Assembly: GCF_007750855.1 (NCBI RefSeq)
Contig: NZ_CP036291.1
Location: 5,306,905-5,370,904, forward strand
DNA length: 64,000 nucleotides
Direction: 5' to 3'
Source: Pirellulimonas nuda
Lineage (GTDB): Bacteria > Planctomycetota > Planctomycetia > Pirellulales > Lacipirellulaceae
Shown here: piece after piece, positions 5,588 to 48,188 of the stretch
How positions within the stretch are numbered: position 1 is the first letter of the stretch
Layout: the number at the start of each line of letters is the position of its first letter
Program-made: the position numbers and the translations under genes
The notes under the pieces: model-generated
Databases searched by the model: none
Seen by the model: only the letters and a program-made list of their open reading frames with translations
Told to the model about the DNA's origin: nothing

Positions 5588-6817
5588 ATGAATCGATTCC
5601 AAACCGCAATCCTGCTTGCCGCGATGGCGGCTTGGCCCGCGTGTCGGGCCTGGGCAGATGATCTACCGACCCCCGCCGCAAGCGAGTTCGACTACGACGC
5701 GCCCGGCGGACCGTCGGAGCACTTCGAAGAGATCACCCCGCCGGTCTCCTCCATGGGCGACATCGGCGGCGCCCTGCAACCGATCCCGCAAGGGGAACAG
5801 TTGTGGGAGTACGAACCGGCGGTGACCGAGAGCACCGGCACCTGGCTGCGCCGCGGGTACTGGTACGTTGAGAGCGACGCGGTCGTGCTCAACCGATACT
5901 GGGACCGCAACGCCTTTGTGCTGGCGTCCGACCTGAGCAGCGGCGGGCTGCAGGACCTGCAGCTCGATCGCAGCAAGCCGGGCGCCGAGGGGAACGTACG
6001 CCTGACGCTCGGGCGGTTCCTGTTCCGCGACACGACCAACCGCGACCACACGATGGAGTTCACCGGCTTCGGCGGCGGCGAGTGGACGCAGTCCAACCGC
6101 ATCACCTCCGACGTGCCCAACGCGTTGTTCGTCCGCGACGACATCGACCTCAACAACCCGTCGTTCGACGGCGCGTCGACGATGCAGACCAAGTACGACA
6201 GCCGGCTGACGATGTTCGAGCTGAACTACCGGGTGCACGACCGCATGGGCCGCGACCAGATGGTGCTGACCCCCAACGGCGATTGGGTCCGACGCGCAAA
6301 CTCTGGCTTGACGCGGAACTTCCTGGTCGGCCTGCGCTACATCGACCTCACCGAGAACCTCGCCTGGTCCGCCCAGGACATCGCCACCCAGACTACGTCC
6401 GCCGATTCGGGCCTCTACAACATCCGCACCAGCAACGACGTGATCGGCCCCCAGGTAGGCGGCGGCATCACCTACGAGTCGGACCGCTTCAGTGTCGAGC
6501 TCTTCGGCAAGGGGGGCGTGATGCTCAACGACGCCAAGGGGGTCTCTCGTATGACCTACGCGAACGCCCAAGGCCTCGACGACTTCTACACCAACAACCG
6601 CGAGGGCGTGCTGACCTACGTCTTCCAGACCGGGTTCATCGGGCGTTGGCACATGCGGCCCAACCTCTCGCTCCGCGGCGGCTACGAGATGCTGTTCCTC
6701 GTGAACATGGCCGCAGCGCCCGACCAGATCAAGTTCGACCCCGACTTCAGCCGCGTAGCGACCTCAAACAACCCGTTTTACCAAGGGCTCACTCTCGGGA
6801 TGGAGTACTTCTGGTAA
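5588..6817 (+). CDS. BBP7-family outer-membrane beta-barrel protein
   Basis: A 409-residue envelope protein with an N-terminal signal peptide (TAILLAAMAAWPACRAWA, cleavage near ADDL). Typical BBP7-type features of planctomycetes are visible: WYVESDAVVLNR near the start of the barrel, repeated amphipathic strands (TMEFTGFGGGEW, LTMFELNYRVHDR, NFLVGLRYIDL, FSVELFGKGGVML), the GPQVGGGITYE segment, and the terminal aromatic strand GLTLGMEYFW, whose final aromatic residue suits outer-membrane assembly. The start is ATG 5588, behind an AAGGGGCGAGG ribosome-binding site; GTG 5582 is two codons upstream and cannot be excluded. The role is unknown. It appears to be monocistronic. Confidence 0.8.
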   Translation: MNRFQTAILLAAMAAWPACRAWADDLPTPAASEFDYDAPGGPSEHFEEITPPVSSMGDIGGALQPIPQGEQLWEYEPAVTESTGTWLRRGYWYVESDAVVLNRYWDRNAFVLASDLSSGGLQDLQLDRSKPGAEGNVRLTLGRFLFRDTTNRDHTMEFTGFGGGEWTQSNRITSDVPNALFVRDDIDLNNPSFDGASTMQTKYDSRLTMFELNYRVHDRMGRDQMVLTPNGDWVRRANSGLTRNFLVGLRYIDLTENLAWSAQDIATQTTSADSGLYNIRTSNDVIGPQVGGGITYESDRFSVELFGKGGVMLNDAKGVSRMTYANAQGLDDFYTNNREGVLTYVFQTGFIGRWHMRPNLSLRGGYEMLFLVNMAAAPDQIKFDPDFSRVATSNNPFYQGLTLGMEYFW

Positions 6818-20972: not shown

Positions 20973-21413
20973 CTACTCCTGCAACTCAAACGTGTGTTCG
21001 TTGTCCTCCCCCTCCTTAATGTCGATCGCTAATTCCGTCCTTGAATTGTATCGTTTGGGCAAGTATTGCTCGACTTCTGCCTCCGTTACTCCGCTCTCCG
21101 GATCGGTGAAAGTCTGAGCTGTATCCCGCATCGCCTTGATCTCCACGCGGTACTCGCCCGGCGCCAGGCCCGGAACCCGTCCGATGCTAAACCGCCCATC
21201 GACGATATCGGCGCCGGCTGTTTGGCCGTCGCCGAGGGGGCGTAGGACGATGGCGCCACTGGGCAACGGATCGCCATTAAAGGTGACCTCGCCGCGCAGG
21301 GACGCCCGTCCGCTCTCGCCGCAACGTACGCACGCCCAGAGCGCGAGAATGACGATCGATAGCCGCGCGGTCGCCTGTTTCCAATCAGAAAGATGCGTCA
21401 ACCACTTCTCCAC
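20973..21413 (-). CDS. Lipoprotein with carboxypeptidase-regulatory-like domain
   Basis: A 146-residue exported protein with a hydrophobic leader and lipobox-like L-W-A-C ([18 protein letters not shown]), followed by one beta-sandwich domain: [23 protein letters not shown]... [20 protein letters not shown]... [12 protein letters not shown]. This form is very common next to DUF1559 genes in planctomycetes. The GTG start at 21413 overlaps the end of the DUF1559 gene by 29 bp, which points to coupled translation. The function is unknown; a surface-anchored partner of the DUF1559 pseudopilin is inference. A paralogue with the same neighbour is at 43684-44154. Confidence 0.78.
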
Positions 21414-22449
21414 GATTCATGGTGCTCAGCGCTTGCCAGACGGGTAGGTCGATATCGTCAGCCACAAACTGTACCGAGGCGTCGCACAGCAAGGCCATCA
21501 CACCGCCGGGATGTCTGCTACGACTGCTGGTGTACGACTGCGTGTTGCTCGCTTGATTGTTCGCGCCTAGACGGTTGCAGGGCGCGTGTTCGTACTCTCG
21601 ACAGTTCCCTTCGTCTGGCGCGCTGCTGTTGGGGGACAGGAAGGTGGTTATGTTGCCGCAGCCCCCCTTCTCGCACCAGATACGGGCGCGTCGGTCACAC
21701 TCCGTGTCGCCCGGGGGCTGATTCATCTCCATCATGGCGAGCGTCTTCGAGGTTCCGTCAGTAACCTGAGCGAGCCGCGCCCCGAAGCTTAGGTGGAACG
21801 GCGCGACGCGCAGCGTTGCGGAAGCCAATGGGTTGGGCGGCCCGACGTTGCAGTCGGGGTGCGGCGCATCGGTGCTCGGCGCCTGCGGGATCTGGCAGAT
21901 CTGCCGCCATGCTCCCCAGTTGATGCCGTAATTGCCCTTCCAATCGATTCCGGCGCCGGCAACACACGCCGAAGCGTTCTGCGACTCGTCGCTCGGGCAC
22001 TGAAACGCGGCGAGCTTCTGCCCGACGGGGCTGTTCGCAACCGCGTATTGATCTTGCGTGCTTTGCTTGAAGTCGTACTGAGCGAACAGCGCCGACTCCT
22101 CCAGGTAAGGCAGGATGAAAGGCACGAACGCCGTCGCCACCTCGGTCGGGTGGTCGACCAAGCGCGTGAGCGTTGTCGCTTTCGCGTCGTAACCAAGGTT
22201 GCCCGGGGGGAGCCGCTTGTTTGACGACTCGTAGTTGTGAAGTGCGATCCCAAGCTGCTTGAGGTTATTCGTGCACTGAGATCGCCGCGCCGCTTCACGG
22301 GCTGCCTGCACGGCCGGCAGCAGGAGCGCGACCAGGATGCCGATGATGGCGATAACCACCAGCAGTTCTACTAAGGTGAAGCCCGCTTGATGAATATCTG
22401 CTTTACTGACGCGCGTCTGGCTCAAGCGTTTCGGATCGTGATCCATCAT
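21385..22449 (-). CDS. DUF1559 protein with prepilin-type leader
   Basis: A 354-residue pseudopilin-like protein. After a 23-residue charged leader comes the type IV prepilin motif G/FTLVE and a long hydrophobic helix ([18 protein letters not shown]), then the DUF1559 signature [20 protein letters not shown]. The C-terminal half has the family's [21 protein letters not shown] and [19 protein letters not shown] blocks. The start ATG 22449 (or the next codon, 22446) is chosen because upstream codons lack family similarity. It sits 43 bp after the tandem PEP-CTERM gene and overlaps the lipoprotein gene, so it is in the middle of a minus-strand operon. The function of DUF1559 is unknown. Confidence 0.9.
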
Positions 22450-22492
22450 TTTCTCGGTGATTGCCTGCTTGTGGTCATGAATACGACGGCGA

Positions 22493-24832
22493 TTAAAACC
22501 CGCAGGTACGGCGGCCCAGTAGACCCCCAAGGACCACGAACAGAGACACCGCGGCGGCGGGCTCCGGCACGGCGCTGCCCGGGCTGGCGCCGCCGACGGC
22601 TGGGTTGCCGAAGCCGTTCTTCCACGTGGTGTAGTCTCCCGGATCGACCGTGCCGCTGCCGTCGCCGTTGCCGTTCAGCACCGCCTCGTTGCCGCCCAGG
22701 TTGTCGCGCCACACGGTGTAGTCCGCCGCATCCACGACGCCGTCGTCGTTGAAATCGCCGCTGAGGCCTTCCGACGCTAGGTACCGCACGATGCCGGTCT
22801 GGATCTCGGTTTGACCTACCTGCCGGTAGAGGAACGTGAGGTCCTGCTCGCCACCCGGAACGAAGCCGGAACCCAACGAGATTTCGGCTCCATCGAGGAC
22901 GACGGAGCTTCCGAGCAGAAACGATTCCGCGATGAAGGTAGCCGAGTTCGCCAAGCCCGGCTCCCAGCCGTTGCCCGACCCGTTGCCGCCCGGGAAGCCG
23001 GGGTCGCCCGCCAGGCCCGTGAACCCGGCGGGGTTCAGCGAGCCGCCATCGGCACCCGCGTCCGCGCTGACAATCTGAATGGCGTCGATCTCGATGCCGG
23101 GCGGAGGGGTCGCCCCGCCGATGGTGCCCCCCACCAGCCTTAGTTCTCCATTGCTAAACACTTGCAGGGTCAGCGGTCTAGGCCGGGCGCCGATGAAGAC
23201 CCGCAGGTCGTTCCACAGCAGCCCGCCATTGTCGTTCACCACGTTCTCTAGCGAACTAAACTCGAGCACCGTACCCGCGGCGACCGCGATGTCTCCCAGG
23301 GGGATGTCGTCTTCGGGGCCTTCGGAGGCGCCCATGTCGGAGGTGATGTAGGTGAAATTGCCGCCGCCGAATGGATCGACGCCGCCGGAGACGTACGACA
23401 GCCGGAAACCTTCATTTTCCGACTGCAGGGACCCCACGCGGAGCGACGACAGGTTGATGTCGGTATCGAAGCTAAACCGGAAGGTTTCCCCGTCCACTGC
23501 CGTGTCCATGCGACGCATCGTGTTGGTGTTGCCGGCGTCGTTAGCAGAGAAAATCCCGATGCCTGTCGCGTTCGATCCGTACGAGCCGGGCGCGTTTGTA
23601 GTAAATCCCTGGAGCGTCATGGTGACGCCCCCTTGGGTGTTCATTAGGGGATCAAGCGGCGATTGATCGGCGATCGGGAAATTGCTGGTGGCCCCGAAGT
23701 CGAAGACGATCACTTGTGCGCTGGCGGGAGCGCCCGAAAGGACGCACGCCGCTAGTGCGACGACGCATCCAGCAACAAGGACGACGCGTGGCGTCCAGGA
23801 CCGAACGCGTCCGGCCGCTCGCACCGCGGCCATCAGAACAAACCCGCAGCAGGCCAAGAGCCCGGCGGATGGCTCGGGGACGGCGCCGAAGGTTGGCAAC
23901 GCCGCGAATGCCGCGGCGCCGTTCGCGTCGATGTAGAGGCTCTTAAAATCGACGAAGTCGTTGATGTCTGTCACGCCGTCGAAGTTCACATCGCCCATTT
24001 GGTAGGCGGCGGTCGTTGTCAACATGCTCAAATCAGCTCCTTGCCCGGAACGGAAGAGTTGCCAGTCGGCCGGATCAATGTCTCCGTCGAAATCTAGATC
24101 ACCAAGAGCCCTCTCCATGCCGTTTCCGTCGAGGATGAACGACGTGTCGGACACCACCAGATCGTCCATCAGCCCGCTGTACACGCGCACCAGATTGCGA
24201 TTGGCGCCGACGATGAAGGACTCCATCGACACAGGGAAGCCGCCAACGCCCGTAAGCTGCCCATCGACGTAGGCGAGCACGGTTTGAGGAACCGCGTGGT
24301 AGGAGAGGATGATTTCTTGCCAGGTATCGGCCGCCAGATCCCCCCCGTCTACCAGGTCGAACGAGCCGAACGCCGTTACACTCGCGACCGTGGAGCCGTT
24401 TTCAATCTGCCAATCGGAGTTCGCAAAGGCGCCCTCGGAAACCCCGGACACGATGCCCCTAGAGCCCATCGGGTCGTCGATGAAGGCTTGATTGGGATTG
24501 ACCCAAAGCCGGACGGTGAAGTTGTCGCTCGGAGTAAAGTTGGGAAACGCTGCCGTTGGGAACTGGATGAACTTCCCGTTCTCGAAGTCGATCGGCTCGA
24601 ACAACGCCGAGGAAGCGCCCGCGGAGCCGGGCCGTACATTCGCGGAAGAAGCGAGAACCCCGAAGAACCCGGCGTCCGCGATGGCGCCGGTCCGGTTGTT
24701 GCCACTCGTGTCTTGTGCGAGGTTTCCGGCGTTCTCGAAACTCAGCCTGAGCACTTCTGCGGCATGGACGCCGCTGTACGCGCTGAGTAGCAGTGCAGCC
24801 GATGCCACGGCCCGAAGCTTCCAGTTACGCAT
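22493..24832 (-). CDS. Tandem PEP-CTERM protein: two exosortase cargos in one frame
   Basis: 779 residues in one uninterrupted frame, start ATG 24832 with signal peptide [17 protein letters not shown]. Module 1: a LamG/concanavalin-like domain (about 25-235), two dockerin-type repeats ([28 protein letters not shown]), then a full PEP-CTERM tail, VPEP at 318-321, a hydrophobic span and Arg residues at 338-349. Directly after comes a second hydrophobic stretch ending A-P-A-S-A (residues 350-372), like a signal peptide. Module 2: a beta-rich domain, two more dockerin-type repeats (about 691-742) and a final VPEP at 755-758. Module 2 is a paralogue of the stand-alone protein at 24906-25607. An internal ATG (23833, residue 334) could start module 2 alone, but no ribosome-binding site precedes it. 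Role unknown; surface display likely. Confidence 0.85.
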
Positions 24833-24905
24833 GACGTCTTCCGTTCTGATGATGACTGTGATCGAAGATAGAAAAGGCGACGAGCCTTCGCTCACGGCTC
24901 CCGGC

Positions 24906-25607
24906 CTACCGATTCTGGCTCTGGTGCGCAGCTCTCCTGGCCGGGAAGCACGCTCCGATGGCGGCAAGCAGGAGAAGCGACGCAGTGGCCGGCTCCGGCA
25001 CCGGCTCCGTACTCACGACAAGGTCGTTCCACAACACACCGCCTGAGGCGTCATTCAATGAGCGAAACTCCAGCAGCGTGCCCGCGGTCACGAAAATGCT
25101 GCCTAAGGGGATGTCGTAGGTTGGTCCCTCGGTGGCTCCAGAGTCGGCAGTCGTGTAAGTGAAGCTGCCACCCGCGAATGGGTCATCGCCCGACAGGAAG
25201 GCCAGCGCAACACCTTCGTCGGCGCCGTTCACATTCCCAAGCCTCAGCGAGATGAGGAACACGTCTGTGTCGAAACTGAAGTGAACCGTCTCTCCATCTT
25301 CCGTGGCGCCGATTCGGCTCCGCTGCCCGCCATTGCCGGATTCCCCGCTGGTTTCGATACCAAAGCCCTGAGAGTTGGGGGTGTAGACTCCGCCTGGAGG
25401 GGTGGTCGTCATGCCCTCTAGAGTGAGGGTGACGCCATCGACGGCGTTCGATTGGGGTGACAACGAGACAGCGGGCACGACGAAATTGGCCGCCACGCCA
25501 GTGTTGACATCTACGCTTCCATCGCCGAAATCGAAGCGAATGGGCGCCGCCGTAGCGAAGCCACCAGCCACCAGAGACAAGCCGACGAGAATCAACTTCA
25601 GCCACAT
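24906..25607 (-). CDS. PEP-CTERM protein, stand-alone paralogue of the neighbour's second module
   Basis: A 233-residue exported protein: signal peptide KLILVGLSLVAGGFATAA, a beta-sandwich domain, and a C-terminal exosortase signal (VPEP, hydrophobic span, PARR). It shares many blocks with the second half of the tandem protein at 22493-24832, such as DGET-(V/F)-x-FSFDTD, FTY-(T/I)-T-(A/S)-D and LLWNDL. ATG 25607 is preferred; ATG 25619 is four codons upstream, but its first base falls in the IS701 target duplication. The IS701 copy begins at 25623, so the native promoter has been pushed about 1.55 kb away. It is the first gene of a probable five-gene operon. Confidence 0.82.
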   Translation of the reverse strand: MWLKLILVGLSLVAGGFATAAPIRFDFGDGSVDVNTGVAANFVVPAVSLSPQSNAVDGVTLTLEGMTTTPPGGVYTPNSQGFGIETSGESGNGGQRSRIGATEDGETVHFSFDTDVFLISLRLGNVNGADEGVALAFLSGDDPFAGGSFTYTTADSGATEGPTYDIPLGSIFVTAGTLLEFRSLNDASGGVLWNDLVVSTEPVPEPATASLLLLAAIGACFPARRAAHQSQNR

Positions 25608-25622
25608 TCGAGAGCACATTAG

Positions 25623-27169
25623 TACTACAGCGCTACGTTGATCTTGTTTGCGTTTGGGCGATCGGCCATGTTGTTGGTGTCGCAGGGGGGCGACCTGGCG
25701 CAGGGCCGCTAGCATGGACGCCGATGAGATCCGCCGTTTGAAGCCGGAATTGACGAGTTACTTGCACGAATTCGACGCCTGTTTCTCGCGTCGAGATACT
25801 CGTGCGCACTTGCCAACCTACGTCGAAGGCCAACTCTCCGAACTGCCCGCGAAGAGTTGCGAGCCGATGGCGCTGGCCGCCGGAGTGGCGCCGCGGACGC
25901 TGCAAGAGTTCCTGGCCCAGCACCGCTGGGACGAAGACGCCGTGCGCCGGCGACTCCAAGAGATCGTCCTCCGAGATCATGCGGGGCCGCACTCGATCGG
26001 CCTGATCGACGAAACGAGCGACGTCAAGAAGGGGGACAAGACGCCCGGCGTGCAGCGGCAGTACTGCGGCTGCGTCGGCAAGCAGGAGAACGGCATCGTC
26101 ACGGTCCACTTGGGCTACGCGACCGGCGACTTCCACGCGCTGGTCGACGGCGAGCTGTTCTTGCCGGAGAGTTGGTCGGAGGACCGCCAGCGGTGTCGGG
26201 CCGCCGGCATTCCCGAGGACATGGTCTACCGCTCCAAGTGGAAGATCGCCCTGGAGCTTTGCGATCGGGCCGCGGCCCACGGCGTGATGTTCGACTGGCT
26301 GACGTTCGACGAAGGCTACGGCGGAAAGCCGCTGTTTTTGCAGGGCTTGGACGGTCGAAAGCAACGCTTCGTCGCCGAGGTCCCGACGACGTTCTCGTGT
26401 TGGACCGACCGGCCGCGCGTGACGGAGCGACCCTTTCGCCGCGGCGGTCGCGGCCGGCCCCGCAAGGTCCCGCGGTTGGTCGCCGCAGCGAGCGCCCCGC
26501 AGAGCGTGCAAGACCTCGCCGAGAACTGGCCCGAGCTGCGCGATCAAGCGTGGACCCGGTACTACGTGAAGGACGGCGAGAAGGGGCCGCTCGTGTGGGA
26601 GGCGAAGCACGCCCGCATCGTCATGAAGAACGACGACGGGTTGCCGGGGATCGAACTCCACCTGCTCGTCGCCCGCAACGCATTGAACCACGATGAGGTG
26701 AAGTATTTCATCAGCAACGCCCCGTCCGACACGACCATCGAGACGTTGTTGCTGGTTGCGTTCTCGCGGTGGCGCGTCGAACGGTGCTTCCGCGACCAGA
26801 AGCAGGAGATCGGACTCGATCAGTGGGAGGGCCGCTGTTACCTCGGTCTCAAACGCCACTTGATCCTGTCGTGCGTCAGCTACTTGTTCCTGGCCCGCTG
26901 TCGTGAACGGCTGCGGGGGAAAAAATCCGGAGGTCACGGTCTGCCAAGTCCACGCCGCCGTCGGCGCGCTGCTGCCGAGTTGGCAGCGTAACGGCCGGGC
27001 CTCGCCGACGCTCATCGAGCACACCGCCAACGTCATCCAGCACTGGCAACAACGCAACGCCGCCGCGCGGGCCTCCCACCGGAAGCGAAACCTGAAAAAA
27101 CTGCGGAGAAACGGCATCATTCTCAAAGGCCTGATACGATGCAGATGGACGTGACCTAGCGCTGTAGTG
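25623..27169 (+). mobile_element. IS701-family insertion sequence with TTAG target duplication
   Basis: 1547 bp. The left end reads TACTACAGCGCTACG; the complement of the right end reads CACTACAGCGCTAGG, giving a perfect inner match ACTACAGCGCTA. Both sides carry TTAG (25619-25622 and 27170-27173), matching the YTAR-type 4-bp duplication known for IS701. The ends are therefore exact and the insertion seems recent, although the transposase frame is shifted. It lies directly upstream of the PEP-CTERM gene starting at 25607. Confidence 0.88.
25714..27154 (+). pseudogene. IS701-family transposase with a single frame shift
   Basis: From ATG 25714 the frame encodes an IS701 transposase with all three catalytic blocks: SIGLIDETSDVKKG (Asp), DWLTFDEGYGG (Asp) and RWRVERCFRDQKQEIGLDQ (Glu). 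At about 26920-26930, in GGGGGAAAAAAT, the frame shifts. Frame 1 ends at 26991 in a basic, meaningless tail, while the true C-terminus (KNPEVTVCQVHAAVGALLPS to the stop at 27154) continues in the +1 frame. Loss of one A from the six-A run would restore a full-length protein of about 480 residues. It is either a recent mutation, an assembly error or a slippage site. Confidence 0.82.
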
Positions 27170-37733: not shown

Positions 37734-39353
37734 TTAGCGGCGATCTCGTGAAGTTACCGCCTCCCAGGTCTCTCCGACGACGATGTCGTCAACCGCCGTT
37801 GTGGCGTGGTCGGAAGTAACCCTCAAAGTAAGACGCTCCATCCATTCGTCGGTGAAAAACTCTGGACTTACAACCGACCAGGAGTCGGGCTCTCTAGCAC
37901 TCGACAGTTCGTCTTCCGTCACGACCCTAGCAAGAAGCTGATCGGGGCCGTCGCGGTTGCTGATGATCTTTCCAACCAAACAGTAGGTGGTGTCCGCGTC
38001 GAGCTGATACTCGAGACGGGAAAATTGATTGCGACGACTGGCGACTAAGAACGACGAGCACGCCACAAAACGCAAACCCTCTTGATAGTGCGGGGTATCG
38101 GGCGTGCCAGGCTGCCTCAGCACAAGCACCACACTTGTCGCTGCGCGGCTCTTCTTCGTTGGGTCGGTGGCGGAGAAACGGAACTTGCAACTCAGAAAGT
38201 AGATTCCGTCTCTGTCCATCCGCAGCGGACGCTCCAGATCGCGATAAGCCTCAAAGACAGAGTCGCACCGTAGGTGCGTCCCCCATGTTGAGAGTGCGGG
38301 ATCAGTGTCGACGGTTTGCTTTGCTTCGAATTGGGGCGGTAGTCCGTCGATCGTCCAGACACGCTTCCAGCCGGCGCCGCTGGCGGTCTGTCCAGCAATA
38401 GGCTTTTCGTGATCGTAGTCGAAGGGCTCCACCGCTATCAGCTCGTTTTCGTCGTAGACGCGAGGGTGGGTGTCCTCGGTTGTCGCCTCGGTGCGATCGA
38501 AAAACGTCGTCGAGAGTTGCACCTCAGAAGCAGCCCGACCCGTGAACAGCTTTGCCTGACCTGACTCAAGATGATCAACCGCTTGGCTGTCAAGCAACCG
38601 ATGCACTTCGCCCTCCAGCACGTGGATCTCTTCGTGGGTGCCTGCAACCAGCACGGCGTACTCGGTGCCAAAATGCATCAGCTCAGAATTCGGGGTGCTG
38701 AGGGCAAAATGCAGGCCAGAGCCGTCGCTTCGAAACACCACTTGCCCCTTCTCCAGGGTGGCGGAGGAGTCCCCTGTGATGATCAAACGGGCGGGTCCGA
38801 TCAGAGACAACGAACCACCAGAGTCGAAGCGAATGGTAGCCGACCCAGACTCCAACTGAAGCACGCCCGCCGCTAGTCGGCCGCCGACCGATCGACCTTC
38901 GGCAGGGGAGGACCACTCTGCGTCGGTCGCACCAACCAAAGAAGCGACGTACCGCTGCCGCCGAGACGGGTCTTCTCCAGGCGGCGACGACTCGCTCAAT
39001 GCGGGTAGAGCCGTAGTACTGCTACCGAAACTGAACCATGCCGCCGCGATACTCGCGGCTAGCCCCCCGACAACGACCATCAAGGTTCTTGAAGAGATTG
39101 AATGCCCCTTGGTCGCCACCGCTTGGTCCGGCACACACGCTACATCGGCGGACCCAAGCCTCTCCAAGTCGGCAAGTGGCATCCGGTATAGATCGTCGTG
39201 CAGCGCGATAAACTTGCGGTAGAGAGAACGGGCTTCGTCACTGCCGGCAAGCAGTGCGTCTAGCCGAGCGCATTGCTCATCGGTTAGCAAGTCCGCTTCC
39301 AAAGCGGAAAACAGGTCAACGAGCTCAGCGCCATGAGGATCGGAGTGCTTCAT
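37734..39353 (-). CDS. FecR-like membrane regulator (probable anti-sigma partner)
   Basis: 539 residues. The N-terminal ~85 residues are cytoplasmic and helical (LVDLFSALEADLLTDEQCARLDALL), one membrane helix spans about 91-109, and a FecR-type beta domain follows (VGGRLAAGVLQLESGSATIRFDSG, SLIGPARLIITG, KGQVVFRS, FGTEYAVLV, VLEGEVHRL). The C-terminal part (about 310-530) looks like a concanavalin-type carbohydrate-binding domain (DGIYFLSCKFRFSATD, LTLRVTSDHATTAVDDIVVG). The start overlaps the stop of the sigma-factor gene (ATG 39353 with TGA 39352-39350). Known logic: the cytoplasmic part holds the ECF sigma factor until the outer domain senses a ligand. Confidence 0.83.
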   Translation of the reverse strand: MKHSDPHGAELVDLFSALEADLLTDEQCARLDALLAGSDEARSLYRKFIALHDDLYRMPLADLERLGSADVACVPDQAVATKGHSISSRTLMVVVGGLAASIAAAWFSFGSSTTALPALSESSPPGEDPSRRQRYVASLVGATDAEWSSPAEGRSVGGRLAAGVLQLESGSATIRFDSGGSLSLIGPARLIITGDSSATLEKGQVVFRSDGSGLHFALSTPNSELMHFGTEYAVLVAGTHEEIHVLEGEVHRLLDSQAVDHLESGQAKLFTGRAASEVQLSTTFFDRTEATTEDTHPRVYDENELIAVEPFDYDHEKPIAGQTASGAGWKRVWTIDGLPPQFEAKQTVDTDPALSTWGTHLRCDSVFEAYRDLERPLRMDRDGIYFLSCKFRFSATDPTKKSRAATSVVLVLRQPGTPDTPHYQEGLRFVACSSFLVASRRNQFSRLEYQLDADTTYCLVGKIISNRDGPDQLLARVVTEDELSSAREPDSWSVVSPEFFTDEWMERLTLRVTSDHATTAVDDIVVGETWEAVTSRDRR

Positions 39354-39880
39354 CCGGCAGCCTCCTCCCGCGTAGCGGTGTTCTCAATACACGCGAGCAG
39401 GTTCCGGCGGATTCTTGCCAGTTTCTTGTACAGGTTCTTCGCCGTCACTCCCATGGTGCTGGCCACTTCCCGAACGCTCCGGCTCGTCGCATATCTCAAC
39501 TTAATGAGCTCCACGTCCGGCTCGCTTAGCTTCGCCATGCACTGCCTCAACGAATTGAGCCGCGACTCGGCCTCCCTAGGGAACTCCGCAGGCCTGTCTG
39601 CCAGCAGCTCGATAGTTGAGAGGGAGAAGCACCTCCGCTTCGCTGCGCGCCGTCTCCACTCCAGTACTTCATAGTAGGCGAAGCGGCACGCCCAACCGGC
39701 AAAGGGCTGCGCTGGGTCGTACTCGTCGAATTTTCGGAGCATCGCTATCGACGCGTTTTGCATCACATCATCGACGGCGCTCCAGTCGGCCAGCAGCGAC
39801 ATGGCGTAGCGCCGCACCGTCTTCTCGTTCAACGAGAAGAGCCGCACAAACTCATCGGCTGCCTTGAGTGATGCTTCCAT
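39350..39880 (-). CDS. ECF sigma factor (sigma-70 family)
   Basis: 176 residues from ATG 39880. Region 2 lies at about 10-75 (RRYAMSLLADWSAVDDVMQNASIAM, FAGWACRFAYYEVLEWRRR) and region 4 at about 110-165 with a helix-turn-helix (SVREVASTMGVTAKNLYKKLARIRR). There is no region 1 or 3, as in ECF factors of the Rhodopirellula/Verrucomicrobium type. The longer open frame upstream lacks sigma-factor similarity. It is translationally coupled to the FecR-like gene behind it. Which genes it controls is unknown; the adjacent rhamnosidase, sulfatases and PEP-CTERM operon are candidates (inference). Confidence 0.9.
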   Translation of the reverse strand: MEASLKAADEFVRLFSLNEKTVRRYAMSLLADWSAVDDVMQNASIAMLRKFDEYDPAQPFAGWACRFAYYEVLEWRRRAAKRRCFSLSTIELLADRPAEFPREAESRLNSLRQCMAKLSEPDVELIKLRYATSRSVREVASTMGVTAKNLYKKLARIRRNLLACIENTATREEAAG

Positions 39881-40478
39881 CCAAACCCCGCGGTGCAGTT
39901 TTCCGCCGGCGTTGGCGGACCGAACGTTCTTCCGGGCCGGCCGTCCTCGCCGCACTATCTCCGGCTTGTCTTACCGGTCACTAGTATCCGGGCCTCGGGG
40001 GGAATATACCCCCTCTATTCTTGCAAATTCTTGCGACCCCGTTGGGTCAATCCTCCGGTGCGATGCTTGCGTTGCGTTGAATGCCCGTAGCGCCGCGGCG
40101 ATCTTGGGAAGAGTCCCCAAACCGGCGGCGCCGCGCACCCCCCGAACGGCGTATCCGTACGCAACCGGCAAAGCCGACCCACTGGAGTGAGCATGTTCTT
40201 CGTGGGCGGCTCCGGCGGAGCTAGCGGCGAGCCACGAGATGATTCTAAGAAAAAGTTGATTTCGCGAGGGGCAAAACCGACCTATCGCACGGAAATAGGG
40301 TGACACGGTCTTCTCTGACGCGTATCCTACTCCCCACTTCTCTGCCGCCAATTCTCAACTCCCTAGTCTGCGGCGCCAGATAAACTGGCGGCCTTGGCCT
40401 TCGTCGCACCGCGACCTCCGTTTTCAAGTTCTATTCGCGACCACTTGTTATCGACAGTCACCATTAAGGAATCAACCG
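39881..40478. other. Divergent control region between sigma factor and PEP-CTERM operon
   Basis: 598 bp between two divergent transcription units. No coding frame with features was seen. It contains a G-run/C-run near 39995-40012 (GGGGGGAATATACCCCC) and an A+T-rich stretch near 40245 (AAGAAAAAGTTGATTTCG). Both operon promoters should lie here. The gene at 40479 is preceded by TAAGGAA as ribosome-binding site. Confidence 0.5.
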
Positions 40479-42380
40479 ATGATTGAACTAAGACGCTTGC
40501 TAGTTCCGGGAGTTTTCTTCGGCATATTAGCCATCTCCAGCGTCGACGCCTCGACCACGACGCTCGACGGCAGCCCGACGCTGTTCGAAGTCATCAACAT
40601 TGGTGATTTCAACGACGGGACCGCGCAAGGGTGGACCATCAATCCGTTGGGGGGAGGGGTATTCCTGCCCGGCACGGAGCTGCAGAACAACGACCCTGTC
40701 AGCGGAGGCGATCCCACGGTCTCGCTCAACCTGAATAACTCGACCCTCCCGGGCGTCCCTTCTACGGTGACCCTCGGAAGCCTCCCGGGACAGTACGACA
40801 TCGTGCAGTTTCGCCTACGCTTCGACACGTTGCCCGCCGCTGCCATCGCGAACACTGCCGTTGCTGGCGACCAGTTCTTTCTCACCGGAGGGCCGAACGC
40901 ACGAGAACCGTTCTATGTCAACAACGGGACCGGGATACAGGGCGTCGATACGGTCCCAGAGCTCCAGACGGACGGCGCCTACCACACCTACACCATCCAG
41001 CGCGCCCCCACCGACGCCGGCTGGGGCAGCAGCTACAGCGTGGTGCGCATCGACCCGATCAACACGTCCGACGCGGTCGGCACGCTGTTCTCCATCGACG
41101 ACGTCAAGCTGGCCCGCTCCAACGACGTGCAGGCCTTCCCCGCGTTCGTCGAACCCGTGCCGCCCAACTTGATCGCCAACGGCGGCTTCGACGCCCTCAC
41201 CGATCCCACGCCTCCAACCGCTACTGGAGCTTGGAATATCAACGGCTCCAACGGCAACTTCACTTTGTTCCAGGGGCAAACGGTCACGGTAGACAACTGG
41301 GGTGTTCACTTCGACGACCCAAATAACCTAGTCCCCGCGGTCAACGGCGGAGAGCTGAACGGATCTTTCTACCTCGACACGCACCGCCGTGTCGCCGGCG
41401 GCGATGTCACGTTGAATTCTGCGATGGGCTACCTCAACGGTCTCGTCCAGGAAAACATCCTCAGCGGGGTGACGATCGACCCTGCCGCGACCTATGAATT
41501 CTCGTTTGATCTGGGGCAGAACGCGGGCACCAACCAGAGCCAGGCCTCCTTTCAGATCGGGCTGACCGTTGGGACCGGCGCGGACGCCACGAACCCGGCC
41601 AACGCGATTGCGGGCTCGTTGCTCGACGTCACGGACTTTTCAACAGTGCCCAATGCCAAGACCACGAACACCCTCATGGTCAGCGGCGCCGATCTGCTCG
41701 CCGCCCAAAGCAGCGGGCAGGTCAACGTCTTCTTCCAGACGCGCAATCTGGCGGCGATCCCCGGCTTTCCGGGGAGTGTCGCCAGCGGCGACGTTTCGAG
41801 TACCGCCATCGTGTCGCAGGTGATGATCGATAACCTCTCCCTCATCTCCCCAAACGTCTTTCCGGCGGGTGACGTGAACAAGGACGGCGTGGTCGACCAA
41901 GCCGACGTCGATGTCGCCCAGCTCTACCTCGACGGCGACGGCGGCGCCACCGCCGCGGTCCGCCAGAACACGCTGACCGCGGCTGGGAACGCGGCGGCGG
42001 CAGTGCTGGCGGGGCTGAACCTCACAGACTTCGACCTGACCGGCAATGACTTCTTCGACGCCGCCGACGTCGCGGCGATCGCCGCGCTGGCCAACGGCGC
42101 CGGCCTGCCCGGCGACTTCAATAGCGACGGCTTCGTAAATGCCGCTGACTACACCGTCTGGCGCGACAATCTCAATGCACCCGAGTCCGTGCTGCCGCCC
42201 GGCACCGGCGACAACTCCGGATCGGTAGACCCCGGCGACTACACGATTTGGAAGAACAACTTCGGCTCGCCCGCGGTGTCGGGCCTGAGCGCCTCGACTG
42301 CCGCCGTGCCGGAACCGGCTACCGTCGGCATGTTGCTCCTGGCGTGTGCTGCGGCGGCAGTAGCGCGCCGCGTGCGTTGA
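40479..42380 (+). CDS. Secreted dockerin-repeat PEP-CTERM protein
   Basis: 633 residues. Signal peptide [18 protein letters not shown]; then a beta domain beginning [13 protein letters not shown], a second domain from LIANGGFD (carbohydrate-binding-like), a dockerin-type block ([20 protein letters not shown]), two more at the end ([35 protein letters not shown]), and a canonical tail: [19 protein letters not shown]. It is a full-length paralogue of the second half of the protein at 44412-48188. The TAAGGAA site sits before ATG 40479. It is the first gene of a plus-strand operon with DUF1559, lipoprotein and tandem PEP-CTERM genes. Role unknown; surface-exposed polysaccharide binding is inference. 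Confidence 0.85.
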
Positions 42381-42550: not shown

Positions 42551-43684
42551 ATGCATACCACGGGTCGGGTGCGAGTCGATCCGCTGCATTGGGCTCGGAC
42601 CGACCGATCGCGGCGGCCTCGGGCAGCGGCCGCTCGCGGCTTTACGCTCGTCGAGCTGCTTGTTGTGATCGCTATCATCGGCATCCTGGTGGCGCTGCTG
42701 CTGCCGGCGGTGCAAGCGGCGCGCGAAGCGGCGCGGCGGTCGCAGTGCATGAACAACCTCAAGCAGTGTGGGCTGGCCGCACTCAACTACGAGAGCTCGC
42801 GCAAGGCGTATCCGTCCGGGGTCGAGGTCTGGCCCGACGACACGGGCGAGCTCATCCCGGAGGTGGGGTGGACCGCAGCGGGGGCAGCCGCCCGTTCGAA
42901 GGGGAACTGGGCCATCCTAACGCTCCCTTACATGGAGCTGCAGGCGCTCTACGACCAGTACGACTTTTCCAACGGGAACGGCGCCGCGAGCACGACGTCG
43001 GTGGTCCGCGGGGGCTCGTCCAATCACAAGAACTCGTTCACCGTCGTCGAAGCCTATCGCTGCCCCTCGGACACAGGGTCCGCCGACTACACGGGCCAAG
43101 AGGCGGTGGGCTCGTATCGGGGGGTTAGCGGGAGGAAGGAGTGGAACGCGGCCCACTACTGGGGGTACCCCTGGTCCTTGAGAAAAGGAGGCTACCTCAA
43201 TGGGTCGGGGCTGAATCTGGTGACCGATGAGTTCGGGGACAACGCCCAATCCAACGTTAGCCGTAAGAACACACGAGGCATCTACTCGGTGTCGGGGATC
43301 CAAGGGGTCAAGCCCGTCCAGATGAGGCAGGTCACCGACGGCACAAGCAAGACGCTGCTTATCAGCGAGTACCACACGATCAGTGGAACTCTGCCCACCA
43401 GGTGGGGGCTGCCGTTTACGAACGCGACGCTTAGCGAAGTGCAGCACCATTTCGTCACCCGGGGTTTGGCCGACTACAACAAGTGCGTCGAGATGCACCC
43501 CGGCTCGGGCAACGAGGTCGGGGGGGACTGCCGGCGCTCGTTCGCCAGCCTCCACGCGGCGGGCGTGCTGGTGTCGACATTCGCCGATGGGCACGTGGCC
43601 ATCGTGCAGCCCGAGATCGATCCGATCGTCTGGAAGGCGCTCGCGACTTTCGGGGGAGAAGAGATTGTGGAGGCCAACCTATAA
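42551..43684 (+). CDS. DUF1559 protein with prepilin-type leader
   Basis: 377 residues with an excellent ribosome-binding site (AGAAGGAGGT just before ATG 42551). A 30-residue basic leader ends in G/FTLVE, then the hydrophobic pseudopilin helix and [19 protein letters not shown]. Later blocks include [50 protein letters not shown] and [20 protein letters not shown], all typical of DUF1559. Its stop overlaps the next start (TAATG), so it is translationally coupled to the lipoprotein. The same gene pair is present at 20973-22449. Confidence 0.92.
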
Positions 43685-44154
43685 TGACGCCGTCCCCAAT
43701 GCTCCGCCACGCTCTGGCCCGCACCGCACCGGTTGTGGTTGCCTTGCTCGCCGTCGGGTTGTCGGCGGGGTGCTCGAAACCCGACTTTGCTGTCGCTCCG
43801 GTCGCGGGGACCGTCACGCTTGGGGGCGAGCCGCTCGCGGGCGCACTTGTCACCTTTCAGCCCCGTGCGTCGGAGGGGGGCATCCTCGCCGGGCGGCCGT
43901 CGGTCGGCGAGACCGGTCCCGACGGCCGCTACCAGCTTGAGACGTACGACGGGTACGAGGGCGCCGTTGTCGGAACGCATCGCGTCAGCATCTCCACCTT
44001 CCGCAAGAAAGCGGCCGAGGGGGACTCGTCGAGCGTCGTTGTCATCGCCGAAGAGCGGGTGCCCGCGCGTTACAACCGGCAATCCGAGCTGAGCGTGGAG
44101 GTGCCCAGCTCCGGGCTAGGCGATTGCAACTTCGAATTGTCGAGCAACAAGTAA
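43684..44154 (+). CDS. Lipoprotein with carboxypeptidase-regulatory-like domain
   Basis: 156 residues. A typical lipoprotein signal ends in L-S-A-G-C (VVVALLAVGLSAGC). One Ig-like beta domain follows: VAGTVTLGGEPLAGALVTFQP, TGPDGRYQLETYDGYEGAVVGTHRVSIS, and VPARYNRQSELSVEV. Coupled to the upstream DUF1559 gene through TAATG. Probably outer-membrane or surface anchored; the function is unknown. Paralogue of the protein at 20973-21413, with the same place relative to DUF1559. Confidence 0.85.
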   Translation: MTPSPMLRHALARTAPVVVALLAVGLSAGCSKPDFAVAPVAGTVTLGGEPLAGALVTFQPRASEGGILAGRPSVGETGPDGRYQLETYDGYEGAVVGTHRVSISTFRKKAAEGDSSSVVVIAEERVPARYNRQSELSVEVPSSGLGDCNFELSSNK

Positions 44155-44411: not shown

Positions 44412-47400
44412 ATGCACCACCTTCGATCGTTGGCGGCAGCCCTGCTTTTACTGACAACGCTGGGGGCATTCGCCAGAAACCCAAATGTCGTGGACCTAGG
44501 GCCGGTGGCCCCCGGCGATAGCTCGCTAGCGGTGCGGGCCGTTCCGTGGGGGAGCGTTCCCGGCGACGTCCAGCAGATGGCCTACCAAGGGTCGGACCTC
44601 TACTTCGCCACGCGCGAGGGGCAGGTCTGGCGGTACGACCAGCAGGGCAACCGAGAGGCGACGGCGTTCCTGGACCTCAGCGCCGCGCTGGCCACGCGAT
44701 TCAAGGCGGTCAACAACCCGCTCTCCGTCAGTGCCGGGCTGCGGGGGATCGCCTTCCACCCCGACTTCGCCGAGCCGGGGGCCGCGGGCTTTGGGAAACT
44801 CTTTACCGCACACGCAGAGAATTTTGGCTCCGCGACTCCGGACCACGCGCTCAATCCTGACTGGGACACCGACGGCACAAAGATCGACAGCGCCCTGGTG
44901 GAATGGTCCGTGGACCCACAAACGGGTCGGGTCAATCCGGATTCCGGCCGCGACGTGTACCGTGTGCAGTTCCCGTTCGGCCGTCACCCGGTCCAGCAAA
45001 TTGCCTTCAATCCGGCCGCCAGGCCGGGAGACGCAGACTACGGCAACCTGTACCTCACCTACGGCGACGCCGGCTCCGCCAACAGCGACAACGTCGTAAA
45101 CTTCAACCGTGTCCAGGGCACGGACACCCCCCTGGGGTCCATCGTCAGAATCAACCCGCTGCAGAGCGACGGCGAGCAATTCACCATCCCGTCGGACAAC
45201 CCATTCGTGGGTTCCGGCGATGGCGCGTTGGACGAGATCTACGCTTACGGCTTCCGCCACCCGCAAACGCTCGGCTTCGACCCCCGCGACGGACGGCTGT
45301 TCGCGGCGGACATGGGCCAGAGCAACGTCGAGGAGGTCAACCTGATCGAGCCCGGCGCCAATTACGGCTACGGCACACGTGAAGGGGTCTACGTGTTCAC
45401 CGACCAGGTCAAGGGGAGTACTGCCGTCGACGACAGCCTGCGGGAGGTCCTTCTGGATTCGTCCCAGACGCTCTTCGTCCAGACCGACGCCGACCCCACC
45501 GGCTCGAACCAAACGGTGCTGTCGCGTGTTGCGGACGGGTTCACCTACCCCGTCGCGCAGTTCGACCACAAGAACGGGGGCTCTGGGAATAATAAGATTG
45601 CAGCAGTTGTGGGGGGCTCGGTCTACCGCGGGACATTGGCGGAAGAGCTCTCCGGTCTGTACCTGTTCGGCGACATGGCGAGCGACGCGATCTACTACTC
45701 AGACGCAAGCACATTGACCAACGACCAAGACCCGGCCGCCGTATTCCGGCTGCCGCTTGAGAACGCCGCGGGGCAACCGAGGACGCTGGGCCAGATCGTG
45801 GGCGTGGGCGCCGGGGGGAGGGCAAATTTCCGCTTCGGTCAGGACGCCCACGGCGACGTCTTCGTAATCAGCAAGGCGAATGACACGATCTACCGCCTGG
45901 AAGGAACCCCAAGGCGGCCGGGTGACTACAACGGCGACGGCGCCGTCGATGCTGCCGACTACACCGTGTGGCGCGACGCGTCCGGCTCGCAGCGCGATCT
46001 CTGGGCCGATGGCAACCGCGACTTTGTGGTCGATGGTCTCGACTACCACGTCTGGAGGCAGAACTTCGGCGTCGGGCCCGCGGCGCACGGCGCCGCCGTG
46101 CCCGAGCCCGCGGCGGGCGTTCTGCTTGCGTGGGTCGCCATCGCTGCGGCTGTGTGGCGGCGCCGCGACTGCCTCCGATGGCGCCCGGCTTCCGCAGCGG
46201 CGCTTGGCTGTCTGTCGATGGCGCTGGGGAGCGCCGCCGCACACGGGGCAACGACGACCCTAGATGGCGGTCCGACCCTCTTCGACACGATTGTCATCGG
46301 GGACTTCGACGACGCAACGCGTCAGGGCTGGACCGAGGCCGCAAACGGGCACGCGGGTGGACTTAGTTCGGATGGTGTGCAGCTACGGAACAATGGCCCC
46401 ACCAGCGGCGGCGACGCGCAGGTCTACCTCGACTTGGGCTTGTCAACGCTCCCCGGAGTTCCCACCCAGTTAACGGTCGGCAACCTTCCCGGCCAGTTCG
46501 ACATCGTGCGGTTCGACCTGCGTTTCGACGCGCTTCCAGCGACGCTCGGCACGACCCACCGTGGTGACCAATTCTTGCTCGATGGGGGCCCTAACGCGCG
46601 TGCTGCGTTCTTCGTGAACGATGGCGCCGGAACGCAAGGCGGCCACTTGGCGCCCGAGCTCCCGACGGACGGCCTGTACCATACCTACACGATTCAACGC
46701 GTGCCGACCGATGTGGGTTGGGGAGAGACCTACGGCCGCGTTCGTATCGACCCCATCAACGATTCCAGCTCCAACGGCACGCGGTTCTCCCTAGACAATG
46801 TCAGGCTGGGCCGAAGCAACGCGGTTCAGCCCTTCCCAGAAATACCCCGGCCCGAGTTGATCAAGAACGGGGATTTCAACAGCGTTAGCAACTACGCGAC
46901 CAACACCGTTGGTCACCAGACCAAGGACGTCCGGGTGGGTGGATCGTTCAACGACTTCGCTCCGTTTACCGGCAGCAATGCAGACATCGACCACTGGACC
47001 CACTTCTCGCGGAATGCCGAAGCGCTGGAAGCCGCGGTAGGGAATGTCGGCGTCGTGGACGGCGTCGGTGAACTTGACGGCACCTACTACCTCGACGCGG
47101 TGTGGCTGGTTGGGCCGGGAGATTACCTTTCGGATTCCGGCGGCGGCTACGACCATGGCCTCGTGCAGGAGATCCGTCTCGAATCCGGTTCGATTACCCC
47201 GAGGACAAACTACACCCTCACGGTAGACTTCACCGTGAAGCAGAACACGGGCCAGGGGCCCGGCGGTGGTCACGAGAACGCCGTCGTAGAGATAGGCCTG
47301 ACCGACGGCGGCGGCGCCGCCGCCACGGACCGGGCCAGCGCCTTCGCGTGGGCCTCTTCACCAACGCTCGACAACAACCCCTCTCAGGTGACCTTGCAGG

Positions 47401-48188
47401 TGTCCGGAGCAGACCTGCTGGCCGCATCAGAGTTGAACGTACTCTTCTCGCACGTGAACACGACCCCGATCCCTGGTTTCCCTGGCAGCGTTGACCCGGC
47501 GGATGTTCGCCCCACGCCCCCCAACCTGGTCTCCTCCGTCGTTTTCAACAACGTGTCGCTGCGGCCAAATTCGATGACCGGCGACGTCAACCTAGACGGT
47601 CTGGTGAACCAGGCTGACCTCGACTTGGCTCAGTTGTATTTCGATGGCGATGGAGGCGAGCCGGCGATCGAACGGCAGAACACGCTCTTCAGCGCCGGCA
47701 ACGGGGCCGCGGACGTGCTGGCGTCGCTCAACCTCACCCGTTTCGATTTGTCCGGCGACGACTTTTTCGACGCAGACGACCTCGCGATGCTCAGCAGCCT
47801 GGTGGTTCCTCTACCTGGCGATCTGAATGGCGACGGCGCCGTAGACGCGGCCGACTACACGGTGTGGCGCGACGCGTTTGGCGACGCGGGGGTCGGCTTG
47901 GCCGCGGATGCAAGCGGCAACGGCCTGGTAGACGCGGCCGACTACCAGATCTGGAACGACACCTTTGGCCAGACGCTAGCCGCGGTTGGGCAAACGCCAG
48001 ACGGCACAGCCGTGCCAGAGCCCACCGCCGCGTGCGTGGTCGTGCTCGCGGGCTTGGCGGGCGGCGTCTGCACGCGATGGGTTCGCCGGTTGAACTCTCG
48101 CGTCAATGGAACTTGTGAATGCAACGTGCGCATGGGCGCACGCTTTACTATGGAAAGCACGCTGCAAGATGAGCGTCTGTTGGTGTAG
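44412..48188 (+). CDS. Tandem PEP-CTERM protein: sugar-dehydrogenase-like module plus second cargo
   Basis: 1258 residues in one frame. Signal peptide LAAALLLLTTLGAFA. Module 1 (about 40-500) is a PQQ-dependent glucose/sorbosone dehydrogenase-like beta-propeller (LRGIAFHPDFA, GNLYLTYGDAGSA, DEIYAYGFRHPQTLGFDP, AADMGQSNVEEVNLIEPGAN), then two dockerin-type repeats and a PEP-CTERM tail with VPEP at 563-566 and RRRDCLRWR at 583-591. A second hydrophobic leader (593-610) ending S-A-A-A follows at once. Module 2 is a paralogue of the protein at 40479-42380, with dockerin-type repeats and VPEP at 1201-1204. The final tail is unusually long (about 30 residues after WVRR). An internal GTG (46152) could start module 2 alone; no clear ribosome-binding site precedes it. 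Confidence 0.85.
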   Translation: MHHLRSLAAALLLLTTLGAFARNPNVVDLGPVAPGDSSLAVRAVPWGSVPGDVQQMAYQGSDLYFATREGQVWRYDQQGNREATAFLDLSAALATRFKAVNNPLSVSAGLRGIAFHPDFAEPGAAGFGKLFTAHAENFGSATPDHALNPDWDTDGTKIDSALVEWSVDPQTGRVNPDSGRDVYRVQFPFGRHPVQQIAFNPAARPGDADYGNLYLTYGDAGSANSDNVVNFNRVQGTDTPLGSIVRINPLQSDGEQFTIPSDNPFVGSGDGALDEIYAYGFRHPQTLGFDPRDGRLFAADMGQSNVEEVNLIEPGANYGYGTREGVYVFTDQVKGSTAVDDSLREVLLDSSQTLFVQTDADPTGSNQTVLSRVADGFTYPVAQFDHKNGGSGNNKIAAVVGGSVYRGTLAEELSGLYLFGDMASDAIYYSDASTLTNDQDPAAVFRLPLENAAGQPRTLGQIVGVGAGGRANFRFGQDAHGDVFVISKANDTIYRLEGTPRRPGDYNGDGAVDAADYTVWRDASGSQRDLWADGNRDFVVDGLDYHVWRQNFGVGPAAHGAAVPEPAAGVLLAWVAIAAAVWRRRDCLRWRPASAAALGCLSMALGSAAAHGATTTLDGGPTLFDTIVIGDFDDATRQGWTEAANGHAGGLSSDGVQLRNNGPTSGGDAQVYLDLGLSTLPGVPTQLTVGNLPGQFDIVRFDLRFDALPATLGTTHRGDQFLLDGGPNARAAFFVNDGAGTQGGHLAPELPTDGLYHTYTIQRVPTDVGWGETYGRVRIDPINDSSSNGTRFSLDNVRLGRSNAVQPFPEIPRPELIKNGDFNSVSNYATNTVGHQTKDVRVGGSFNDFAPFTGSNADIDHWTHFSRNAEALEAAVGNVGVVDGVGELDGTYYLDAVWLVGPGDYLSDSGGGYDHGLVQEIRLESGSITPRTNYTLTVDFTVKQNTGQGPGGGHENAVVEIGLTDGGGAAATDRASAFAWASSPTLDNNPSQVTLQVSGADLLAASELNVLFSHVNTTPIPGFPGSVDPADVRPTPPNLVSSVVFNNVSLRPNSMTGDVNLDGLVNQADLDLAQLYFDGDGGEPAIERQNTLFSAGNGAADVLASLNLTRFDLSGDDFFDADDLAMLSSLVVPLPGDLNGDGAVDAADYTVWRDAFGDAGVGLAADASGNGLVDAADYQIWNDTFGQTLAAVGQTPDGTAVPEPTAACVVVLAGLAGGVCTRWVRRLNSRVNGTCECNVRMGARFTMESTLQDERLLV

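What the first reader, a model, noticed from the sequence alone, without database searches (positions are those of the whole stretch)
20973..25607. Two operons share the same set: single PEP-CTERM, tandem PEP-CTERM, DUF1559, lipoprotein
Seen: operon 1 (25607 to 20973, minus) and operon 2 (40479 to 48188, plus) each hold a DUF1559 gene overlapping a carboxypeptidase-regulatory-like lipoprotein gene, one stand-alone PEP-CTERM gene and one tandem PEP-CTERM gene. In each, the stand-alone protein is a paralogue of the second module of the tandem protein in the same operon and has a normal signal peptide (LLWNDL and FSFDTD blocks in operon 1; TTTLDG-x-PTLF and YHTYTIQR in operon 2). This shows that module 2 is a full cargo with its own signal peptide and suggests a cassette that makes paired surface proteins.
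Basis: partly seen in the sequence, partly recalled or inferred. Interest (0 to 1): 0.85.

Follow-up and report, generated by a model that had tools for sequence, protein, structure and literature searches.

The report
Planctomycete surface-protein polyproteins with internal signals
Two bacterial operons each carry a gene in which two complete secreted surface proteins, each with its own start and end sorting signal, are fused into one chain, and such chains of two or three proteins prove to be a conserved feature of a whole planctomycete family, probably cut apart at the membrane to give matched amounts of proteins that work together.

Summary
Both operons carry a stand-alone PEP-CTERM gene, a DUF1559 pseudopilin gene overlapping a lipoprotein gene, and one long open frame made of two complete secretory modules. 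The general phenomenon is bigger than 'paired proteins'. The genome has 11 ORFs with an internal PEP-CTERM followed by a second signal peptide, plus one PEP-CTERM-DUF1559 fusion; five of the 11 hold three modules. A three-module form (CTD1, CTD2, M3) recurs across the family Lacipirellulaceae: 39 of 55 relatives' M3 modules lie in 1278-1570-aa frames. The same three modules also occur as three genes, as 1+2|3, as 1|2+3, and in permuted orders, always with their own signals. At 95 internal junctions PEP is exact in 93; within related clades it is 99.5% identical, against 27% for the rest of the hairpin. Net charge between the two helices is positive in 95/95. Only 13/95 keep an ATG with a ribosome-binding site. 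Best reading: a polyprotein threaded through Sec as helical hairpins and cut by exosortase (PEP) and signal peptidase I (AxA). Operon 1's tandem has a fused orthologue in Aeoliella; operon 2's is a lineage-specific fusion. The two operons are not copies of one cassette. Cleavage itself is inferred.

The parts
24906..25607 (-). operon 1: stand-alone PEP-CTERM protein S (233 aa; signal peptide, cargo, C-terminal PEP-CTERM)
   Evidence: ORF; weak PEP-CTERM 16.8 bits; XDP1-like at 25 bits, far below its cut-off of 125; 42% identical to module 2 of the tandem
22493..24832 (-). operon 1: tandem PEP-CTERM polyprotein (779 aa): SP1 - LamG - dockerin - PEP/TM - SP2 - cargo - CTD2 - dockerin - PEP/TM
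   Evidence: one open frame; LamG and dockerin; full-length fused orthologue L357, 43% identity
23717..23881 (-). operon 1 internal junction: VPEP - hydrophobic helix - [12 protein letters not shown] - hydrophobic helix - ASA|Q (exosortase motif then signal peptide)
   Evidence: no ATG between the helices; only GTG inside the first helix
22592..23200 (-). operon 1 module 2: CTD2 (Ig-like beta sandwich) plus type I dockerin
   Evidence: HMM 202 bits; AlphaFold2 pLDDT 88.8; Foldseek: dockerin matched (2y3n, TM 0.75 by target length), no close match for the sandwich
21385..22449 (-). operon 1: DUF1559 / H-X9-DG prepilin-like protein
   Evidence: PF07596 168.5 bits; TIGR04294 and TIGR02532
20973..21413 (-). 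operon 1: small lipoprotein-like protein, overlaps the DUF1559 gene by 29 bp
   Evidence: (CarboxypepD_reg, below cut-off)
40479..42380 (+). operon 2: stand-alone dockerin/PEP-CTERM protein (633 aa)
   Evidence: 48% identical to module 2 of the operon 2 tandem
42551..43684 (+). operon 2: DUF1559 / prepilin-like protein
   Evidence: PF07596 131 bits; AAGGAGG before the ATG
43684..44154 (+). operon 2: small lipoprotein, start codon overlaps the DUF1559 stop (TAATG)
44412..48188 (+). operon 2: tandem PEP-CTERM polyprotein (1258 aa): SP1 - GSDH - dockerin - PEP/TM - SP2 - cargo - dockerin - PEP/TM
   Evidence: one open frame; GSDH, dockerin, PEP-CTERM; in the other family genomes searched matches cover one half only
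46098..46250 (+). operon 2 internal junction: VPEP - helix - RRRDCLRWRP - helix - AHGA
   Evidence: no start codon between the helices
39350..39955 (-). ECF sigma factor (Sig-70_gvs1) divergent from operon 2, likely its regulator
   Evidence: TIGR02989 142 bits, over cut-off; 14 of 16 such genes lie within 8 kb of a DUF1559 gene
37734..39353 (-). FecR-like membrane protein, partner of the ECF factor
   Evidence: weak FecR 18.4 bits; same pair beside four tandem loci

Best explanation
The tandem genes are polyproteins of exosortase substrates. Each module is a complete PEP-CTERM protein: signal peptide, cargo, usually a beta-sandwich domain and dockerin, PEP motif, membrane helix, Arg cluster. 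In the fused form the Arg cluster after one module's helix also serves as the n-region of the next module's signal peptide, so the chain crosses the inner membrane as a helical hairpin with a positively charged cytoplasmic loop. Signal peptidase I would cut after the second helix (AxA) and exosortase at the PEP, which discards the hairpin and releases separate mature proteins in equal amounts from one translation. The modules of one locus form one surface assembly: a cargo type is often shared by the stand-alone protein and by modules 1 and 2, while position-specific scaffolds (CTD1, CTD2, M3) are constant. A nearby ECF/FecR pair probably controls many such clusters; what the DUF1559-lipoprotein pair does is not known. 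Shown: open frames, motifs, conservation, fused/split/permuted states, gene neighbourhoods, presence of exosortases. Inferred: cleavage at both sites, stoichiometry, joint assembly, regulation.
For: (1) The same modules occur as three separate genes (L226, L239), 1+2|3 (L231, L238, L240), 1|2+3 (L197, L225, L233, L234), 1+2+3 (37 relatives, 5 own) and permuted 2+3+1 (L227) and 3+1+2 (L237), always with their own signals. The tree needs at least 4 fused/alone changes. (2) The internal PEP is exact in 93/95 junctions, against 49/50 terminal ones. Within six clades it is 99.5% identical while the rest of the hairpin is 27%. (3) All 95 junctions have a positively charged loop (median +4, 13 residues) and a -3/-1 motif after the second helix. 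(4) No independent start in most: ATG with an SD-like site in 13/95, against an SD-like site at 11/12 separate-gene starts. (5) Two exosortases in the genome. (6) Operon 1's fused form is conserved in Aeoliella. (7) CTD1 best matches CTD1 in 43/44 and CTD2 matches CTD2 in 42/44, while m1 and m2 cargo of one locus are homologous in 25/44.
Against: No protein or RNA data. PEP-helix conservation could reflect exosortase recognition without cleavage of a non-terminal site; every PEP-CTERM known to me is C-terminal, so whether exosortase accepts one followed by another helix is untested. 13 junctions keep an ATG with an SD, so some loci may also initiate internally. A stand-alone paralogue was not found in about 40% of triple loci (contig ends and limited flanks contribute). 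Operon 2's fusion is not conserved. The motif finder prefers PEP, which slightly favours point (2).
Confidence: 0.72

Rival explanations
1. The chains are not cut at PEP: they stay as multi-module membrane proteins whose modules are tethered by transmembrane hairpins, with only the first signal peptide and the last PEP-CTERM processed.
For: Hairpin topology is ideal in 95/95 junctions; no processing data exist.
Against: Does not explain 99.5% identity of the PEP triplet against 27% for the rest of the hairpin, nor AxA motifs at all junctions, nor free interchange with split and permuted states.
Confidence: 0.15
2. Modules 2 and 3 are separate genes that happen to lack an upstream in-frame stop; each is translated from its own internal start and the fusion is incidental or a sequencing or annotation artefact.
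For: 13/95 junctions keep an ATG with an SD-like site.
Against: 16/95 junctions have no ATG/GTG/TTG before the second helix and many others have one only inside the first helix; the fused frame recurs in 39 relatives' loci from independent assemblies including single-contig genomes; both window junctions lack a usable start.
Confidence: 0.08
3. Simple local gene duplication: PEP-CTERM genes duplicate in tandem, stops are lost by drift, and neither the fusion nor the DUF1559 neighbourhood has functional meaning.
For: Local paralogy of S, m1 and m2; relic ATG+SD junctions show fusion by stop loss; operon 2 is a private fusion.
Against: M3 is unrelated to modules 1/2 by cargo yet joins the same set; fused orthologous clades span several genera; internal signals are under strong constraint; a DUF1559 gene lies within 300 bp downstream in 31 of 55 relatives' loci.
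Confidence: 0.12

Closest known systems
PEP-CTERM / exosortase (EpsH) protein-sorting system (Haft 2006, PMC1569441)
   Same: PEP motif, membrane helix, Arg cluster and N-terminal signal peptide in every module; exosortases in the genome.
   Different: The 2006 description and the 2025 cyanobacterial work (PMC12188702) treat PEP-CTERM as a single C-terminal signal; here it is internal and followed by another signal peptide.
Bradyrhizobium FbcH cytochrome b/c1 polyprotein cut by signal peptidase (from my own knowledge; not found in the library)
   Same: Bacterial polyprotein separated at an internal signal sequence.
   Different: FbcH joins a membrane protein to a secreted one with a single cut; here several secreted modules are joined and two different enzymes would cut each junction.
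Verru_Chthon cassette proteins (TIGR02596, TIGR02599)
   Same: From memory: a repeated gene cassette with prepilin-like proteins in the same superphylum.
   Different: The DUF1559 proteins score 26.9 and 27.1 bits against a cut-off of 70, through the shared prepilin N-terminus only.
Cellulosome dockerin-cohesin assemblies
   Same: Modules carry type I dockerins; the model matches solved dockerins.
   Different: No cohesin found in the genome.

Membership tests
PEP-CTERM exosortase substrates | PEP motif followed by a membrane helix and a basic cluster | tested here: met
   93/95 internal and 49/50 terminal motifs exact; window hits near or below Pfam cut-off
PEP-CTERM exosortase substrates | signal lies at the extreme C-terminus | tested here: not met
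   internal copies in the own-genome ORFs are followed by hundreds of further residues; terminal copies meet it
PEP-CTERM exosortase substrates | exosortase encoded in the genome | tested here: met
   two PF09721 matches, 199 and 162 bits
PEP-CTERM exosortase substrates | cleavage by exosortase | not testable with these tools
   needs proteomics
Polyprotein (one chain cut into several mature proteins) | single open frame with several complete secretory modules and no independent starts | tested here: met
   13/95 junctions keep ATG+SD
Polyprotein (one chain cut into several mature proteins) | proteolytic separation observed | not testable with these tools
   no proteome available
DUF1559 / H-X9-DG prepilin-like family | PF07596 domain, prepilin N-terminus, H-X9-DG motif | tested here: met
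   PF07596 for both; TIGR02532 for both; TIGR04294 found for operon 1 only
Verru_Chthon cassette | members of TIGR02596/TIGR02599 | tested here: not met
   26.9 and 27.1 bits against 70; 15.6 and 14.8 against 256.5
XDP1 exosortase-dependent surface protein | NF041927 at cut-off | tested here: not met
   25 bits against 125 for operon 1 S
Cellulosome-type dockerin-cohesin system | cohesin partner in the genome | tested here: not met
   no PF00963 match at E<=0.1

The most novel reading that the evidence does not exclude
A bacterial polyprotein strategy for cell-surface assembly: multi-protein surface complexes are synthesised as one Sec-exported chain whose modules are separated by excising a transmembrane hairpin with two different proteases, exosortase at PEP and signal peptidase I at AxA. 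The three-part scaffold stays constant while the cargo domain is exchanged as a set from locus to locus, many loci carrying a dedicated ECF/FecR switch.
Probability: 0.5. Interest if true: 0.87.

Novelty: new variant of a known kind. Interest (0 to 1): 0.78.

Why it matters
Exosortase has been treated as an enzyme that trims the C-terminal end of its substrates. Internal PEP-CTERM signals maintained across a family would mean that it can also act as a polyprotein-processing enzyme. Bacterial polyproteins with several complete secretory modules are rare. The split, fused and permuted forms give natural controls, and the module sets say which of the hundreds of uncharacterised planctomycete surface proteins belong together. 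A cultured strain with a finished genome (Lacipirellula limnantheis I41) carries a triple, so the cleavage question can be tested directly.

Tried and rejected
A1 (M3) could not seed the genome-contig scan; a CTD2-M3 alignment was used instead. Cohesin as dockerin partner: none found. CTD2 as a known fold: Ig-like sandwich without a close PDB match, best E 5e-3 at TM 0.25. The junction profile A3 across the phylum finds mostly ordinary C-terminal PEP-CTERMs; only two clean full-length junctions outside the family, G323/L323 and G405/L326. Lipoprotein census by regex misses known cases (both window operons), so 27/75 is a floor. Literature: no PMC paper joins PEP-CTERM with DUF1559 or with polyprotein; subscription journals are not covered. 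Idea that the two operons are copies of one cassette: rejected.
Full report
CHECK OF THE OBSERVATION. Operon 1 (minus strand) runs S 25607-24906, tandem 24832-22493, DUF1559 to 21385, lipoprotein 21413-20973, with gaps of 73, about 45 and -29 bp. Operon 2 (plus) runs S 40479-42380, DUF1559 42551-43684, lipoprotein 43684-44154 (TAATG overlap), tandem 44412-48188. Pfam and NCBIfam support DUF1559/prepilin, dockerin, LamG and GSDH domains; the PEP-CTERM matches in the window are weak but have the right anatomy. Each tandem is one open frame with an internal VPEP, a hydrophobic helix, an Arg-rich loop, a second hydrophobic helix and a signal-peptidase-like site. Neither junction offers a usable internal start codon. 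The stand-alone protein is the closest stand-alone relative of module 2 in both operons (42% and 48%).

A GENOME-WIDE CLASS. The window lies in a 6.62-Mb single-contig genome with 149 PEP-CTERM matches and 91 DUF1559 matches. A frame-by-frame scan of 1.45 Mb around those matches found 11 ORFs with an internal PEP-CTERM followed by a second signal peptide, and one PEP-CTERM protein fused in frame to a DUF1559 protein (at 421934 in the genome). Five of the 11 hold three modules. In these, module 1 carries a C-terminal domain with a dockerin pair (CTD1), module 2 another with a dockerin (CTD2), and module 3 a LamG-like domain (M3) found complete in no other ORF examined.

THE TIE TO DUF1559 AND TO A PARALOGUE. 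Tandem ORFs have a same-strand DUF1559 gene within 1 kb in 8/11 cases against 28/138 stand-alone PEP ORFs (Fisher p=6e-4; 6/11 against 20/138 within 300 bp, p=0.004). In 8 of 10 tandem loci with any stand-alone relative, the best relative lies within 5 kb. Tandem duplicates are often neighbours for trivial reasons, so this shows local paralogy, not function by itself. The pattern is more specific across species. Of 44 triples, 43 CTD1s best match a CTD1 and 42 CTD2s a CTD2, whereas the m1 and m2 cargo of one locus are homologous in 25 and a stand-alone paralogue was found in 21 of 39 relatives' loci and 4 of 5 own. Scaffold follows position; cargo often follows locus.

CONSERVATION. An M3 profile matched 29 of 247 genomes of the order, 27 of them in the window's family. 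Contig lengths identify three of those genomes as Aeoliella straminimaris, Botrimarina colliarenosi and Lacipirellula limnantheis I41, so the family is Lacipirellulaceae. Of 55 strong matches outside the own genome, 39 lie in frames of 1278-1570 aa, 7 in shorter frames of two modules or cut by a contig end, and 9 are M3 alone. Gene maps show three separate genes (L226, L239), 1+2|3 (L231, L240; M3 first in L238), 1|2+3 (L197, L225, L233, L234) and permuted single frames 2+3+1 (L227) and 3+1+2 (L237). A tree of 59 M3 rows needs at least four fused/alone changes, while fused orthologous clades span several genera. A DUF1559 gene lies within 300 bp downstream in 31 of 55 loci.

THE JUNCTION. At 95 internal junctions PEP is exact in 93, against 49 of 50 C-terminal copies. 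Over 142 pairs within six clades the PEP triplet is 99.5% identical while the rest of the hairpin is 27%. The loop between the helices has a median of 13 residues and a net positive charge in 95/95, and a -3/-1 motif follows the second helix in 95/95. An ATG with an SD-like site remains at 13 junctions, against an SD-like site at 11 of 12 starts of separate genes. These look like recent fusions by stop loss on the way to obligate ones. Two exosortases are encoded.

MECHANISM. The simplest account of constrained internal PEP motifs, AxA sites, a positively charged cytoplasmic loop and free exchange between split, fused and permuted forms is a polyprotein exported by Sec as hairpins and cut by exosortase and signal peptidase I into equimolar proteins that act together. 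Both cuts are inferred. An uncut hairpin-tethered protein is the main rival; it does not predict the constraint on PEP.

THE TWO WINDOW OPERONS DIFFER. Operon 1's tandem has a full-length fused orthologue in Aeoliella (L357, 831-aa frame, 43% identity), with a DUF1559 gene directly downstream and a protein ending like the FecR/LamG regulators directly upstream; in the window a DDE transposase gene (25648-26991) sits upstream instead. Operon 2's tandem joins two proteins that match only half by half in the other family genomes searched, so it is a private fusion as far as this sample shows.

REGULATION AND STRUCTURE. Of 16 Sig-70_gvs1 ECF factors over cut-off, 14 lie within 8 kb of a DUF1559 gene, in 19% of the genome (p=5.5e-9); ECF/FecR pairs flank operon 2 and three other tandem loci. 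AlphaFold2 of operon 1 CTD2 gives a confident Ig-like sandwich plus dockerin (pLDDT 88.8). Foldseek recognises the dockerin only, and no cohesin is found.

LIMITS. No expression or protein data. Own-genome counts are lower bounds. The M3 search scored at most seven candidates per genome. Outside the family only two clear junctions were found in a sample of 294 genomes of the phylum, so this is mainly a Lacipirellulaceae trait with rare cases elsewhere. The literature search covers open-access papers only.

Noticed in passing
window 37734-39955 and genome-wide: ECF sigma factors of the Sig-70_gvs1 family cluster beside DUF1559/PEP-CTERM gene clusters (14 of 16 within 8 kb), usually with a FecR-like partner: apparently a dedicated regulator pair for these clusters.
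   Followed up: yes
genome C1:422789-420942 (L041): A PEP-CTERM dockerin protein is fused in frame to a DUF1559 prepilin-like protein, joining an exosortase signal to a type IV prepilin N-terminus in one chain.
   Followed up: partly
window 25648-26991: A DDE_5 transposase gene lies directly upstream of operon 1, where the Aeoliella orthologue (L357) has the end of a FecR/LamG-type regulator; operon 1 may have lost its regulator or be driven by the IS.
   Followed up: partly
genome C1:3441252-3442016 (L243): One of the two exosortases sits in an open frame of 1769 aa, far longer than a normal exosortase.
   Followed up: no
L323, L326: Clean PEP-CTERM/signal-peptide hairpin junctions in other planctomycete families (1241- and 988-aa frames), probably independent polyproteins.
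   Followed up: partly
window 1092-1382 and 2966-5602 (minus): The two ORFs end in the identical 30 residues PPAEPAPASAIWTPDGAAATAGEKKLWMPS, suggesting a recent partial duplication around the PEP-CTERM gene 1445-2941.
   Followed up: no
genome-wide: Many dockerins but no cohesin detectable in the genome; the dockerin partner is unknown.
   Followed up: partly
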